The translations under genes were made by a program, and so were the position numbers. Positions 2,216 to 14,453 of a stretch of DNA of 64,000 nt are shown piece after piece. The DNA is taken from contig NZ_LZJW01000057.1 of the NCBI RefSeq assembly GCF_001667885.1, positions 99,930-163,929 on the forward strand. The letters are read 5' to 3'. How positions within the stretch are numbered: position 1 is the stretch's first letter; every line of letters begins with the position of its first letter. Source of the stretch: Mycobacterium scrofulaceum (lineage in GTDB: Bacteria; Actinomycetota; Actinomycetes; Mycobacteriales; Mycobacteriaceae). The notes under the pieces were generated by a model that was not told the DNA's origin, did not search any database, and was given only the letters and a program-made list of their open reading frames with translations.

Positions 2216-2240
2216 GTTTAACGAAGTACCTATAGGGTAT
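2216..2240 (+). promoter_or_regulatory. SigF/SigB-like promoter of the glycosyltransferase island
   Basis: GTTT (2216-2219), a 15-nt spacer and GGGTAT (2235-2240) match the mycobacterial SigF/SigB consensus at every core position. The -10 ends 10 nt before the ATG at 2251, so the transcript would be almost leaderless. Confidence 0.65.
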
Positions 2241-2250
2241 TTCGCTCGCC

Positions 2251-3219
2251 ATGGCTGGCCCGGGACGAGCAAAGAATGTGCTGGTGTGGCACGTCCATGG
2301 TTCCTGGACGCAGTCGTTCGTGGCGGGAGGCCACCACTACCTGGTGCCGGTGGCCGGCGACGGCGGCGAAGATGGGATCGGGCTCGCGGGACGGTCCTGG
2401 CCCAACGCGCGGGAGGTTCCGCTCGAGGAGTTGGGCCGCGAAGACATCGATCTGGTTGTGCTGCAACGCCCGCACGAGGCCGCGCTGGTCGCCCACTGGG
2501 CGGGCCGCCGGCCCGGGTCCGAGCTTCCGGCCGTCTACGTCGAGCACAACGCGCCGCGGCCGAGCCCCACACAGAGCCGCCACGTGGTCGCCGACCGCAC
2601 CGACATCCCGCTGGTTCACGTCACCGACTTCAACCGCCTGATGTGGGACAACGGCCGGGCCCCGACCCGGGTGATCGACCATGGCATCGCCGACCCGGGC
2701 CATCGCTACACCGGCGACATCCTCAGGGCGGCCACCATGATCAACGAGCCACTGCGCCGCAACCGCGTGGTCGGCGCCGACCTGCTGGAACCGTTGTCGG
2801 CGTACGCGCAGATCGACGTGTGGGGCATCGGCACTGAAGACCTCCACGTCGACCGCGGTGGCGTCATCGGCCGCGGCCAAGTCGCCGCGCCGGCGCTCTG
2901 GGATCGGATCGCCCGCAGGCGGGTCTACCTGCATACCGCCCGCTGGACCTCGCTGGGGCTCTCGCTCATCGAGGCGATGTTTCTCGGGATGCCCGCGGTT
3001 GCCGTCGGCACGACGATGGCCCCGTTCGTAATCCCTTGCGAGGCGGGCGTTGTCAGCGCCGACGTCAACGCGCTGGGCGCTGGCCTGCGCGACTTTATGA
3101 ACGACCAGGCCACCGCGGCCGCGGCCGGTAAGGCGGCGCGCGAATTCGCCTCGGCCCGGTTCGGACTCGGGCGTTTTCTCGCCGATTGGGACCAAGTGAT
3201 CGAGGAGCAATGCAGATGA
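2251..3219 (+). CDS. Glycosyltransferase, GT4-like (GT-B fold)
   Basis: A 322-residue protein resembling GT-B glycosyltransferases. The N-terminal Rossmann-like half has LVWHVHGSWTQSFVAGGHHY near residue 10. The C-terminal half holds the donor-binding signature LGLSLIEAMFLGMPAVAVG, with its Glu-rich helix near residues 236-246, typical of family 4. It is shorter than most GT4 enzymes (350-420) but no break is visible. It is the first gene behind a near-perfect SigF-type promoter; the nearly leaderless mRNA supports this ATG. The next gene, also GT4, starts 16 nt after its stop. Donor and acceptor are unknown; the neighbourhood suggests heptose or pentose transfer. Confidence 0.8.
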   Translation: MAGPGRAKNVLVWHVHGSWTQSFVAGGHHYLVPVAGDGGEDGIGLAGRSWPNAREVPLEELGREDIDLVVLQRPHEAALVAHWAGRRPGSELPAVYVEHNAPRPSPTQSRHVVADRTDIPLVHVTDFNRLMWDNGRAPTRVIDHGIADPGHRYTGDILRAATMINEPLRRNRVVGADLLEPLSAYAQIDVWGIGTEDLHVDRGGVIGRGQVAAPALWDRIARRRVYLHTARWTSLGLSLIEAMFLGMPAVAVGTTMAPFVIPCEAGVVSADVNALGAGLRDFMNDQATAAAAGKAAREFASARFGLGRFLADWDQVIEEQCR

Positions 3220-3235
3220 TCGGAAGGGAGCCCGC

Positions 3236-12543: not shown

Positions 12544-12544
12544 T

Positions 12545-13240
12545 ATGACGTCACCCTCGCTCGGCGGTGTACTGATCTCCGGCGGCTCCTCGGGGCTGGG
12601 AGCGGCCGCGGTGGCGGCCGTGGCGCGGCGAGGCGGCCTGCCGCTGGTCATCGATAAGAAACCCCCCGCATCCGAAGTGCCTTACGCCGCTTGCGATCTC
12701 GCCGACACCAGCGCGGTCGCGGCCGCCGTCGAGTCGCTGGCCGATCAGGCCGGCGGCCGGCTCACCGGCGTCTTCACCGCCGCCGGCATCGACTCCTGCG
12801 GCACGCTCGAACAGGTTCCGGCCAAGGAGTGGGAGCAGGTGATCGCCGTGAACCTGGTCGGCACCGCGGCCGTCATCCGGGCGGCCCTGCCCTACCTGCG
12901 CGCGACCCAGGGGCGCATCGTCACCTGCGCTTCGACCCTGGGCATCAAGGCGGTCGGCGACGCCACCGCCTACTGCGCGTCAAAATTCGGGGTCGTCGGT
13001 TTCACCCGCGCCCTGGCCGCCGAACTCGCGGGCCAGGTGGGCGTGACGCTGCTCATCCCCGGCGGCATGCACACCCCGTTCTTCGAGGGGCGCACCGAGC
13101 AATACAAGCCGCCGGCGGACGCCAAGCTCAACCAACCCGCCGACGTCGCCGAGACGGTGCTGTTCGCCCTCTCCCAGCCCGCCGGGTGTGAGGTGCGTGA
13201 GCTCGTGGTGTGCGCCTCCACGGAGTCTTCGTGGCCTTGA
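12545..13240 (+). CDS. Short-chain dehydrogenase/reductase
   Basis: A 231-residue classical SDR with the cofactor loop SGGSSGLGAAAV at about residues 12-23, the TAAGID strand (NNAG equivalent), a Ser in VTCASTLG and the catalytic YCASK. The place in the operon suggests oxidation or reduction of a sugar or of the carrier of the glycan. It is not an HldD-type extended SDR, so it is unlikely to be the 6-epimerase that makes L,D-heptose. Substrate unknown. It begins 1 nt after hldE and overlaps the next GT9 gene. Confidence 0.85.
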   Translation: MTSPSLGGVLISGGSSGLGAAAVAAVARRGGLPLVIDKKPPASEVPYAACDLADTSAVAAAVESLADQAGGRLTGVFTAAGIDSCGTLEQVPAKEWEQVIAVNLVGTAAVIRAALPYLRATQGRIVTCASTLGIKAVGDATAYCASKFGVVGFTRALAAELAGQVGVTLLIPGGMHTPFFEGRTEQYKPPADAKLNQPADVAETVLFALSQPAGCEVRELVVCASTESSWP

Positions 13241-14196
13241 CGCTCGATCCCGGCCCCGACGGGGCCGACAGCATCGTCGTGCTGCGCGCCCTGGGTCTCG
13301 GTGACCTGCTCACGGCGGTGCCCGCGCTGCGTGGGCTGCGCCGGTGCTACCCGGGGGCGCGCGTCATGCTCGCCGCCCCCGACCGCTACCGCGAGCTGGC
13401 CATGCTCACCGGCGCGATCGACGAACTACTGCCCACCAGCTGCCTGGGCGACGTGCAGCCGTTGCCGCGCCCGCCCGCGCTGGGCATCAACCTGCACGGC
13501 TGCGGACCGGAAAGCATCGACCACCTGCTGGCCTGGGCGCCGCAGGCGGTGCTCACCCACTGCCATCCACGCCATCCCACCCTCAAGGGACCGCCATGGC
13601 GCCCGGACGTGCACGAGGTGAACCGCTGGTGCACGCTGCTCGAATGGGCCGGAATCCCTTGCGACGCAACCGATGTCCTGATACCAAGGCCCGAGGGTAT
13701 TCCGTTCGACCAGACCGGCGCCGTCGTGATCCATCCCGGCGCCTCCGCGCCGGCGCGGCAGTGGCCCGTGGACCGCTTCGCCGAGGTCGCCGCGGCGCTC
13801 AGCGACGACGGCTACGACGTGATCATCACCGGGTCCGCCGCCGAATTCGATCTCGCGCACCAGGTTGCCCGTCAGGCCGGTCTGCCCCGCACGGCGGTGG
13901 TGTCCGGGCTGCTCGACCTGCCCGCGCTGACGGCCCTGGTGTCGGACAGCCGGCTGGTGATCTGCGGGGACACCGGCCTGGGTCACCTGGCCGCCGCGAC
14001 CGGCACGGCGTCGGTGGTGTTGTTCGGGCCCACCGCTCCCGCCCGGTGGGGCCCGCGCGGCCCGGCGCCGCACGTCGCGCTGTGGACCGGCGGGGTCGGT
14101 GATCCGCACGCCGCCGTGCCGCACGAGGGCCTGCTGTTGATCACGGTCGCGCGGGTGCTGTCCGCGAGCCGGCAAATCCTGCGGGAGAACGCATGA
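13231..14196 (+). CDS. Glycosyltransferase family 9 (heptosyltransferase-like), second copy
   Basis: A 321-residue GT9 protein with VVLRALGLGDLLTAVPALRGLRR at the start, VVIHPGASAPARQWPVDRFAEVA in the middle and VICGDTGLGHLAAATGTASVVLFGP as the donor-binding signature. It is diverged from the GT9 at 9552. I prefer the GTG at 13231, which has a GGAG six nt upstream and overlaps the SDR gene by 10 nt; a GTG at 13210 in the same frame is possible. With the other GT9 it suggests at least two heptose additions. Confidence 0.88.
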   Translation: MALTLDPGPDGADSIVVLRALGLGDLLTAVPALRGLRRCYPGARVMLAAPDRYRELAMLTGAIDELLPTSCLGDVQPLPRPPALGINLHGCGPESIDHLLAWAPQAVLTHCHPRHPTLKGPPWRPDVHEVNRWCTLLEWAGIPCDATDVLIPRPEGIPFDQTGAVVIHPGASAPARQWPVDRFAEVAAALSDDGYDVIITGSAAEFDLAHQVARQAGLPRTAVVSGLLDLPALTALVSDSRLVICGDTGLGHLAAATGTASVVLFGPTAPARWGPRGPAPHVALWTGGVGDPHAAVPHEGLLLITVARVLSASRQILRENA

Positions 14197-14453
14197 GCGG
14201 GCCGCTCGTCGGCGCGGCGGGCGCCGGCTCCGCCGGGCTGACCCCCGCCGTCCGCGAGGCCGACCGCGGGCCGAACACGGTCGCCGCGGGCGTCGAGCCC
14301 GACTGCGTGCGCAAACTGCCCGCCGGCGTCGCGGCCATCGACGAATCCCGGTTACGGGCCGCGGCGCAGGACATTAGGGCCCACCTCGTTTCGAGCATCG
14401 CGGAGCGTCCGGGTCCGAGCTACGCCGGAAACGCTGCGGCGCACGGCTTTTAG
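14193..14453 (+). CDS. Small hypothetical protein at the end of the heptose operon
   Basis: An 86-codon reading frame whose ATG overlaps the stop of the GT9 gene (ATGA), the same coupling used through the whole operon. The peptide is rich in Ala and Gly. Its second half, with IDESRLRAAAQDIRAHLVSS, could be an amphipathic helix. I recognise no family. The overlap is its only real support; it could be a chance frame in GC-rich DNA. Between its stop and the next gene (14454-14683) I see only a possible promoter. Confidence 0.35.
   Translation: MSGPLVGAAGAGSAGLTPAVREADRGPNTVAAGVEPDCVRKLPAGVAAIDESRLRAAAQDIRAHLVSSIAERPGPSYAGNAAAHGF

What the first reader, a model, noticed from the sequence alone, without database searches (positions are those of the whole stretch)
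2216..14453. Complete ADP-heptose route and heptosyltransferase-like genes in a mycobacterium, apparently under stress-sigma promoters
The sequence shows GmhA, HldE and a GmhB-type phosphatase domain, which is enough to make ADP-D-glycero-D-manno-heptose, plus two GT9 proteins. It also has three other GT genes, a carbamoyltransferase and a UDP-xylose-synthase-like SDR. ADP-heptose and GT9 enzymes are known for lipopolysaccharide core, which mycobacteria lack, so the acceptor must be another lipid, glycan or protein. No HldD-type epimerase, flippase or polymerase is seen, so the product may be a short D,D-heptose-containing, carbamoylated glycoconjugate. This is my best candidate for an undescribed system.
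Basis: partly seen in the sequence, partly recalled or inferred. Interest (0 to 1): 0.82.

Follow-up and report, generated by a model that had tools for sequence, protein, structure and literature searches.

The report
SigF-driven heptose glycan operon (cwg)
A mycobacterium carries an eleven-gene set, very likely the counterpart of the "cell wall glycan" operon known from Streptomyces, that is predicted to make a rare seven-carbon sugar (heptose) and would likely build it into an envelope glycan when the stress regulator SigF, whose promoter motif stands before three of its genes, switches it on.

Summary
Window 2216-14196 carries eleven open genes: GmhA, HldE, a GmhB domain fused to a GT2, two GT9, two GT4, one GT2, a UDP-xylose-synthase-like SDR, a NodU/GdmN-type carbamoyltransferase and a classical SDR. 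No HldD passes its cut-off in the genome. But it is not an undescribed island. The GT9a marker is in 67 of 297 genomes of the genus (E 1e-100 or better) and 70 of 296 of the class (1e-60 or better). In 3 of 4 fetched loci of a Streptomyces-like genus the published sigmaE promoter of the "cwg" (cell wall glycan) operon stands before the same gene set, twelve genes, with GmhA eighth and HldE ninth as annotated for cwgH and cwgI. So this is very likely the mycobacterial cwg operon. New: (i) in the papers I searched, cwg is not described as a heptose pathway; (ii) genes A, C and D of the window each have an exact SigF-type promoter; such promoters stand at head genes in 25 of 27 mycobacterial, 19 of 22 Pseudonocardiaceae and 9 of 12 Nocardia loci, against 1 of 390 internal genes; (iii) in some relatives the operon lies beside a SigF-type sigma/anti-sigma locus; (iv) the ORF at 14193-14453 is a remnant of a UDP-glucose dehydrogenase gene. 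Product and acceptor are inferred.

The parts
2216..2239 (+). SigF-type promoter (GTTT-N15-GGGTA) of gene A
   Evidence: exact match; same motif before A in 18 of 24 scorable mycobacterial loci
2251..3219 (+). A: GT4-type glycosyltransferase (322 aa)
   Evidence: PF00534 1.8e-07; present in 59 of 80 named loci
3236..4456 (+). B: GT4 glycosyltransferase, MshA/6kih (Tll1590)-like (406 aa)
   Evidence: TIGR03449 1.6e-73, below its equivalog cut-off; PDB 6kih 2.9e-69, 3c4q 2.2e-51
4466..5344 (-). C: GT2 glycosyltransferase (292 aa)
   Evidence: PF00535 9.7e-18
5357..5380 (-). SigF-type promoter of gene C, back to back with that of D
   Evidence: exact match; present before C in 22 of 22 scorable mycobacterial loci
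5384..5407 (+). SigF-type promoter of gene D and the genes behind it
   Evidence: exact match; before D in 9 of 24 scorable mycobacterial loci
5418..6416 (+). D: UDP-xylose synthase (UDP-glucuronate decarboxylase)-like SDR (332 aa)
   Evidence: PDB 4gll/2b69 UXS1 5e-95
6422..8065 (+). E: NodU/GdmN/TobZ-type O-carbamoyltransferase (547 aa)
   Evidence: PF16861 3.4e-67, PF02543 1.6e-50; PDB 9s2t 1.2e-93, 7vyj GdmN 3.6e-87
8062..9555 (+). F: GT2 fused to GmhB-type heptose-bisphosphatase (497 aa)
   Evidence: PF00535 3.3e-13 and PRK08942 2.6e-33 on one ORF; PDB 2gmw GmhB 2.7e-19; fused in 25 of 27 mycobacterial loci, adjacent but separate in 3 of 4 Streptomycetaceae loci
9552..10568 (+). G: GT9 protein a (338 aa)
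   Evidence: PF01075 2.2e-21; AlphaFold model mean pLDDT 88, best PDB matches 3tov and 1psw WaaF
10565..11134 (+). H: GmhA, sedoheptulose-7-phosphate isomerase (189 aa)
   Evidence: PF13580 2.2e-25; PDB 5i01 2.5e-49
11131..12543 (+). I: HldE, heptose-7-phosphate kinase / heptose-1-phosphate adenylyltransferase (470 aa)
   Evidence: PRK11316 1.7e-84; PDB 4e84 2e-23, 5x9q 2.3e-29
12545..13240 (+). J: classical SDR (231 aa), substrate unknown
   Evidence: PF00106 1.5e-33; in 59 of 80 named loci; no match in the three Streptomyces-like cwg loci
13231..14196 (+). K: GT9 protein b (321 aa)
   Evidence: PF01075 1.6e-26; model mean pLDDT 93, best PDB match 1psw WaaF
14193..14453 (+). L: remnant of a UDP-glucose 6-dehydrogenase gene (N-terminal piece only)
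   Evidence: tblastn 50% over 50 aa, E 5e-11 on this stretch; a UDP-glucose dehydrogenase match accompanies the operon in 23 of 27 mycobacterial loci (family check)

Best explanation
[quoted passage not shown] Proposed steps (inferred from families): GmhA turns sedoheptulose-7-phosphate into heptose-7-phosphate; the HldE kinase half makes the 1,7-bisphosphate; the GmhB half of F removes the 7-phosphate; the HldE nucleotidyltransferase half makes ADP-D,D-heptose. Without HldD the sugar would stay in the D,D form. The two GT9 proteins would add heptose, the GT4 and GT2 proteins would add further sugars, UXS-like D would supply UDP-xylose where UDP-glucuronate is available, and E would O-carbamoylate the glycan, as WapO is thought to do on the LPS-core heptose of Pseudomonas. 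The cluster proteins look cytosolic or peripheral, so assembly would take place on the inner face of the membrane or on a soluble acceptor. Shown directly: gene content, order, conservation, catalytic motifs, promoter motifs. Inferred: product, acceptor, carbamoyl site, SigF dependence.
For: Identity with cwg: the published sigmaE promoter of sco6179-6190 (PMC6767563, passages), searched with up to 3 mismatches, hits 8 of 295 genomes of one genus. Of the 4 hits that I fetched, 3 (L189 exact, L190, L192) are followed directly by D-E-GT2-GmhB-G-A-B-H-I-K-C-C: twelve genes in one direction, GmhA eighth and HldE ninth, as cwgH 'phosphoheptose isomerase' and cwgI 'bifunctional synthase/transferase' are annotated in S. 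coelicolor (PMC5839063, passages). Integrity: active-site motifs kept in GmhA, HldE and GmhB. GT9 folds match WaaF/WaaC. Conservation: matches to all of A-K in the 7 mycobacterial stretches L021-L027; of 80 named loci G 80, F 77, I 72, H 71, K 68, A 59, B 59, J 59, E 51, D 50, C 34. SigF motif: before A 18/24, C 22/22, D 9/24; before B and E-K 1/202. Head genes (no cluster gene within 100 bases upstream on the strand) against internal genes: Mycobacterium 51/79 v 0/202, Pseudonocardiaceae 25/49 v 1/103, Nocardia 9/37 v 0/85. Permuted motifs average 1.55 of 236 heads against 69. The motif agrees with the M. smegmatis SigF consensus GTTT-N14-19-GGGTA (PMC4694148, passages). Linkage: in G002, G004, G011 and G014 the best SigB/F/G sigma factor of the genome is the one beside the operon (with 27, 78). 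A UDP-glucose dehydrogenase gene accompanies 52 of 98 loci (family check), which fits a UDP-xylose or UDP-glucuronate donor; a polysaccharide pyruvyltransferase-type gene lies near 15 of 98, which fits a surface glycan.
Against: No expression or chemical data for this operon in any mycobacterium. GT9a has Asn where WaaF has Asp (N260 invariant in 20 homologues), so it may not be a plain heptosyltransferase. All heptose enzymes score below the NCBIfam equivalog cut-offs (HldE 284 of 521 bits, TIGR02199 173 of 181.5, GmhA 202 of 276, GmhB 115 of 178). Six of 24 A genes and 15 of 24 D genes lack the strict motif; outside Mycobacterium, Nocardia and Pseudonocardiaceae 0 of 29 loci have it. One of the four fetched promoter hits (L191) is followed only by a GT2 and a GT4b-like gene, not by the operon, and four hits were not examined. 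The UDP-glucose dehydrogenase gene is decayed in the window, though another stands elsewhere in the genome (C141). In three of seven same-genus genomes checked (G010, G017, G019) the best SigB/F/G sigma is not beside the operon. In S. coelicolor sco6185 was chosen as a stably transcribed reference gene (PMC4630627, passages), which argues against strong induction there. The M. smegmatis SigF paper has no 'hept' or 'carbamoyl' in its main text; whether M. smegmatis has the operon I did not establish. GT4b resembles enzymes with soluble phosphorylated acceptors, which would fit a soluble product as well.
Confidence: 0.62

Rival explanations
1. The operon makes a soluble intracellular heptose/xylose glycoside (a protectant or storage oligosaccharide) rather than an envelope glycan.
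For: No flippase, polymerase or ligase family among the cluster proteins and no hydropathy window above 1.80. GT4b is closest to 6kih Tll1590 (a sucrose-phosphate synthase by recall) and MshA, which use soluble phosphorylated acceptors (acceptors recalled). SigF also affects trehalose synthase in M. smegmatis (PMC4694148, table passages).
Against: The Streptomyces counterpart is in the sigmaE cell-envelope regulon (PMC6767563). GT9 enzymes of known function act on lipid A core or on proteins (recalled). WaaC/WaaF-type inner-core assembly also uses peripheral proteins (recalled). A pyruvyltransferase-type gene near 15 of 98 loci points to a surface glycan.
Confidence: 0.2
2. The operon makes a secreted small molecule with a heptose, as septacidin- or hygromycin-type pathways do (recalled).
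For: The carbamoyltransferase is closest to natural-product enzymes (9s2t decarbamoylnovobiocin carbamoyltransferase, GdmN, TobZ). Heptose natural products occur in actinomycetes (recalled).
Against: I recognised no PKS, NRPS or other scaffold gene among the families shared by 8 or more of 98 loci (ten of their members checked with Pfam). Presence in 41 of 114 genera and sigma-factor promoters look like core physiology.
Confidence: 0.08
3. The operon glycosylates proteins with heptose, as TibC does with autotransporters.
For: Both GT9 models match TibC (4rap, 4rb4) after WaaF/WaaC.
Against: No acceptor protein gene recognised among the shared neighbour families. Six GT domains plus a carbamoyltransferase suggest an oligosaccharide, not a single sugar on a protein.
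Confidence: 0.07
4. In this strain the pathway is decaying and yields little or an altered product.
For: The UDP-glucose dehydrogenase gene is a remnant in the window, and the closest relative L037 has no such match over 55 bits at its locus.
Against: All eleven other genes are open, with 90-96% identity in L037, and the three SigF motifs are exact. A second UDP-glucose dehydrogenase-family gene exists (C141).
Confidence: 0.1

Closest known systems
cwg operon of Streptomyces coelicolor (sco6179-6190, 'cell wall glycan'; Hong et al. 2002, not read, cited in PMC6767563 and PMC5839063)
   Same: Homologous gene set (UXS-like, carbamoyltransferase, GT2, GmhB, GT9a, GT4a, GT4b, GmhA, HldE, GT9b, GT2) in front of which the published sigmaE promoter stands in 3 of 4 fetched loci of a Streptomyces-like genus.
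   Different: Window: three SigF-type promoters in place of one sigmaE promoter, other gene order, GT2 and GmhB fused, extra classical SDR J, one GT2 domain fewer, remnant of a UDP-glucose dehydrogenase gene.
LPS inner-core heptose pathway (GmhA-HldE-GmhB-HldD, WaaC/WaaF, WapO carbamoyltransferase of Pseudomonas)
   Same: Same enzyme families for ADP-D,D-heptose, GT9 folds, a carbamoyltransferase alongside heptose genes (PMC8005017, passages).
   Different: No HldD over cut-off in the genome, GT2-GmhB fusion, all scores below the equivalog cut-offs; mycobacteria have no LPS (recalled).
[quoted passage not shown] tuberculosis (GmhA, HddA, GmhB, HddC)
   Same: Starts with GmhA and uses a GmhB-type phosphatase (PMC7705670, passages); the genome has a second gmhA-type gene at C141:12303.
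   Different: Here a fused kinase/adenylyltransferase HldE (ADP, beta anomer by family) replaces HddA/HddC, and GT9 proteins are present.
SigF regulon of mycobacteria
   Same: Promoter sequence and spacing (PMC4694148, passages).
   Different: That M. smegmatis paper has no 'hept' or 'carbamoyl' in its main text; whether M. smegmatis has the operon I did not establish.

Membership tests
cwg operon | Gene set behind the published sigmaE promoter, twelve genes, GmhA-like eighth and HldE-like ninth | tested here: met
   Met in L189, L190, L192; not met in L191; four further promoter hits not examined. S. coelicolor itself was not available, so the link rests on promoter, gene number and order plus its published annotation.
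cwg operon | Window genes are homologous to that set | tested here: met
   All 12 places of L189 match window genes A-I and K at 44-69% identity; J has no counterpart there.
cwg operon | sigmaE-type promoter at the head | tested here: not met
   The Streptomyces-type pattern is at none of the three head genes of the window and at 2 of 70 head genes in mycobacterial loci; SigF-type motifs stand there instead. In the other groups the pattern is at 5 of 532 cluster-gene sites, one of them the known one in L189.
SigF regulon | GTTT-N14-19-GGGTA shortly upstream of the start codon | tested here: met
SigF regulon | Loss of expression in a sigF mutant | not testable with these tools
   No expression data at hand for a mycobacterium with the operon.
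ADP-heptose pathway enzymes | GmhA, kinase, GmhB, nucleotidyltransferase active-site motifs | tested here: met
   Alignments to 5i01, 4e84, 5x9q and 2gmw keep the Gln/His/Glu, GAGD, HxGH and DxD/Cys-His-Cys-Cys motifs (motif roles recalled).
ADP-heptose pathway enzymes | NCBIfam equivalog cut-offs | tested here: not met
   HldE 284.2/521, TIGR02199 172.8/181.5, GmhA 201.7/276, GmhB 115.1/178 bits.
GT9 heptosyltransferases | Pfam Glyco_transf_9 over cut-off and WaaC/WaaF fold | tested here: met
   76.7 and 93.5 bits against 22; best folds 3tov/1psw.
GT9 heptosyltransferases | Asp of the (N)D(S/T)G motif at the donor site | tested here: inconclusive
   Kept in GT9b (D247 invariant in 20), Asn in GT9a (N260 invariant in 20).
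LPS core biosynthesis | HldD | tested here: not met
   No HldD over cut-off in the assembly.
LPS core biosynthesis | Lipid A / Kdo acceptor genes | not tested
   Not searched; their absence from mycobacteria is recalled.

The most novel reading that the evidence does not exclude
Actinobacteria, mycobacteria among them, make an LPS-core-like D,D-heptose envelope glycan as a general-stress (SigF) response; sigmaE control in Streptomyces is a later takeover, and the cwg-bearing mycobacteria therefore hold ADP-heptose, a known trigger of innate immunity, when stressed.
Probability: 0.25. Interest if true: 0.85.

Novelty: new variant of a known kind. Interest (0 to 1): 0.6.

Why it matters
It gives the cwg operon, whose product is described only as a predicted cell wall glycan, a concrete biochemical hypothesis (ADP-D,D-heptose, xylose, carbamoyl) that can be tested in a laboratory Streptomyces, and it shows the same gene set behind a different stress promoter in mycobacteria and relatives, a case of regulatory rewiring of a conserved pathway. 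ADP-heptose has been reported as a potent pathogen-associated molecular pattern (PMC10948575, start of abstract in the listing), so its presence in some mycobacteria would bear on how such species are sensed.

Tried and rejected
Rejected: a recent transfer into this strain alone; GT9a of 20 mycobacterial rows forms one clade (100/99). Two of 12 Nocardia rows group with the mycobacteria and ten elsewhere, so transfer between families is not excluded. Rejected: J as the missing HldD; it is a classical SDR, and no HldD passes its cut-off in the genome. Rejected: F as a membrane protein by hydropathy (no 19-residue window above 1.6). Led nowhere: paper searches for ADP-heptose or heptose in mycobacteria and actinobacteria and for heptosyltransferase with SigF (one Frankia paper, in which an 'ADP-heptose:LPS heptosyltransferase' gene and a SigF-domain sigma factor both rise under salt, PMC5563000, passages; homology to this operon not tested). 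The search 'cell wall glycan' + heptose + Streptomyces found 2 papers, unrelated by title and abstract start. Absence from print is claimed only for these searches of an open-licence library.

Rows dropped: one search leaves out genes absent, partial or too near a locus edge (A 24, C 22, D 24 scored of 27 loci); one search counts only sites with 130 bases upstream; L112 (partial match) was left out of the tree; L191 was left out; L035 was not used. In one search the 40 permuted motifs are random draws with repeats, the highest (33 heads) is the true motif shifted by one base, and L021-L027 are not included. Start codons were chosen by eye.

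
Full report
What is there. The region 2216-14196 holds eleven open genes: A (GT4-type), B (GT4, MshA-like), C (GT2, minus strand), D (UDP-xylose-synthase-like SDR), E (carbamoyltransferase), F (GT2 fused to a GmhB domain), G (GT9), H (GmhA), I (HldE), J (classical SDR), K (GT9). From D to K neighbours overlap or lie at most five bases apart, as in an operon. The flanks are a type IB topoisomerase (970-2025), with a haem-binding MHB protein before it, and a thiamine-pyrophosphate enzyme (14546-16477).

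Enzyme integrity. The alignments to solved structures show the expected active-site motifs: GmhA against 5i01, HldE against 4e84 and 5x9q, the GmhB half against 2gmw (the roles of the residues are recalled). D matches human UXS1 at 5e-95 ('human' recalled). E matches decarbamoylnovobiocin carbamoyltransferase, GdmN and TobZ at about 1e-79 to 1e-93. The predicted folds of both GT9 proteins (mean pLDDT 93 for K and 88 for G) match WaaF, WaaC and the Veillonella GT9 best. Against this, all heptose enzymes lie below the NCBIfam equivalog cut-offs, and GT9a has Asn in place of the Asp of the NDSG motif, invariant in 20 homologues, while GT9b keeps Asp. The assembly has no HldD over its cut-off (best 81 bits against 274.6), so D,D-heptose is the likely form.

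Distribution. HldE is found in 24 of 61 genomes (own included) at 0.001, 17 of them at 1e-60 or better. GT9a is found in 70 of 297 genomes of the genus at 1e-10, 67 of them at 1e-100 or better, and in 75 of 296 genomes of the class at 1e-20, 41 of 114 genera, 70 of the genomes at 1e-60 or better. Among named genomes the best 80 loci come from Mycobacterium, Nocardia, Amycolatopsis, Prauserella, Saccharopolyspora, Geodermatophilaceae, Micromonosporaceae, Nocardioidaceae, Streptosporangiaceae, Kitasatospora and others; the gene counts over these 80 are. In the GT9a tree the 20 mycobacterial rows are one clade.

It is very likely the cwg operon. A paper on ArgR lists the S. [quoted passage not shown] The sigmaE regulon paper gives its promoter (PMC6767563, passages; the word heptose does not occur in the main text). 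Searching that promoter with up to 3 mismatches in 295 genomes of one unnamed genus of the class (Streptomyces by inference) gave 8 hits. I fetched 4. In 3 the promoter is followed by D-E-GT2-GmhB-G-A-B-H-I-K-C-C (L189 exact, L190, L192): twelve genes, GmhA eighth, HldE ninth. The fourth (L191) has only a GT2- and a GT4b-like gene behind the promoter. Four hits were not looked at.

Promoters. M. smegmatis SigF promoters follow GTTT-N14-19-GGGTA (PMC4694148, passages). In the window GTTT-N14-17-GGGTA occurs 6 times against 0.20 expected; three of these stand directly before A, C and D, those of C and D back to back. In 27 mycobacterial loci the motif stands before A in 18 of 24, C in 22 of 22 and D in 9 of 24 cases that could be scored; before B and E to K in 1 of 202; before topIB in 2 of 18. 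By group: loci with the strict motif at a head gene are 25 of 27 Mycobacterium, 19 of 22 Pseudonocardiaceae, 9 of 12 Nocardia, 0 of 12 Geodermatophilaceae, 0 of 6 Micromonosporaceae, 0 of 4 Streptomycetaceae, 0 of 7 others. A relaxed motif adds 6 of 12 Geodermatophilaceae, 3 of 6 Micromonosporaceae and 1 of 7 others, still 0 of 4 Streptomycetaceae. Internal genes: strict motif at 1 of 557 in all groups together. A Streptomyces-type sigmaE pattern is at 5 of 532 cluster-gene sites of the non-mycobacterial loci, one of them the known one in L189, at none of the three head genes of the window, and at 2 of 70 head and 1 of 202 other gene sites in mycobacterial loci. So SigF-type promoters are the common state on the Mycobacterium, Nocardia and Pseudonocardiaceae side of the sample, and sigmaE control is known for Streptomyces; which is older is not shown.

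Linkage to the regulator. In 15 of 98 loci a SigB/F/G-type sigma-70 gene, in 12 a weakly RsbW-like ATPase gene (Pfam 22.1 bits, cut-off 27.4) and in 14 a STAS-domain gene lie near the operon (order; families of one member each). In G002, G004, G011 and G014 the sigma factor beside the operon is the best SigB/F/G match of the genome; in G010, G017 and G019 the best match is elsewhere, though in G019 the second best (C77:60978) lies within about 7 kb of the operon. The window's genome has two such sigma factors over the cut-off, neither on the window's contig.

The right end. A UDP-glucose dehydrogenase gene (Pfam 1.4e-49 in L043) is present in 52 of 98 loci and beside the operon in 23 of 27 mycobacterial loci. 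In the window only a piece of its N-terminal part is left (14193-14453; 50% over 50 residues), and the closest relative L037 shows no match at this place either. Another UDP-glucose dehydrogenase-family gene lies on C141, and a partial match at the end of C159.

How it would work. The pathway GmhA, HldE kinase, GmhB, HldE adenylyltransferase gives ADP-D,D-heptose by established knowledge of these families. The acceptor is not shown. The envelope is favoured because the Streptomyces counterpart belongs to the sigmaE envelope-stress regulon, because GT9 enzymes of known function work on envelope acceptors (recalled), because a carbamoyltransferase beside heptose genes has a precedent in the LPS core of Pseudomonas (WapO, PMC8005017, passages), and because a polysaccharide pyruvyltransferase-type gene lies near 15 of 98 loci. 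A soluble glycoside remains the main rival: no transporter, polymerase or membrane protein is among the eleven, and B resembles enzymes that use soluble phosphorylated acceptors. Other data to weigh: cwgA rises with salt in S. coelicolor (PMC13011467, passages), while sco6185 was picked as a stably expressed reference gene (PMC4630627, passages).

Novelty. The gene set is known as cwg, with undefined product. That it is a heptose pathway is not stated in what I saw of the papers that my searches found (open-licence library only; Hong et al. 2002 was not read and may say so). Its SigF-type promoters in mycobacteria and relatives, the GT2::GmhB fusion, the extra SDR J and the link to a SigF-type locus are the new points. 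Verdict: new variant of a known kind.

Noticed in passing
window 970-2025; L024-L028, L036, L084, L087, L099, L101, L104: A type IB topoisomerase gene lies beside the operon in 26 of 98 loci, in mycobacteria as well as Micromonosporaceae; why is unknown.
   Followed up: partly
L024-L027, L039, L042, L045, L050, L052, L053, L055: SigF-type sigma and RsbW-like genes next to topIB and the operon, mostly with a STAS gene beyond.
   Followed up: partly
L113:4455-5390 and 14 other loci: A polysaccharide pyruvyltransferase-type gene (PF04230, 9.4e-12 in L113) near the operon in 15 of 98 loci.
   Followed up: partly
window 17834-17858 (-): SigF-type motif upstream of a hemerythrin-like gene (17220-17780, minus).
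   Followed up: no
window 27914-27938 and 29166-29189 (-): SigF-type motifs upstream of an alpha-amylase-family/CBM48 gene (25752-27902) and of an alcohol-dehydrogenase-type gene (27972-29153).
   Followed up: no
window 43593-47309: One ORF of 1238 aa joins trehalose-phosphatase and GH65 domains.
   Followed up: no
L049 (Mycolicibacterium houstonense): Matches to E, F and G occur twice in the locus.
   Followed up: no
G004 and G011 HldE (L006, L008): The HldE matches in these two same-genus genomes each hold one stop codon, as does that of G060 outside the genus; described only.
   Followed up: no
G000 contig C141:12303-12761: Second GmhA-type gene in the same genome, perhaps of the GDP-heptose route known from M. 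tuberculosis.
   Followed up: no
L035 (G034): A more distant HldE (36%) with a GmhB-like piece and a GT9b-like gene, but no match to the other operon genes.
   Followed up: no
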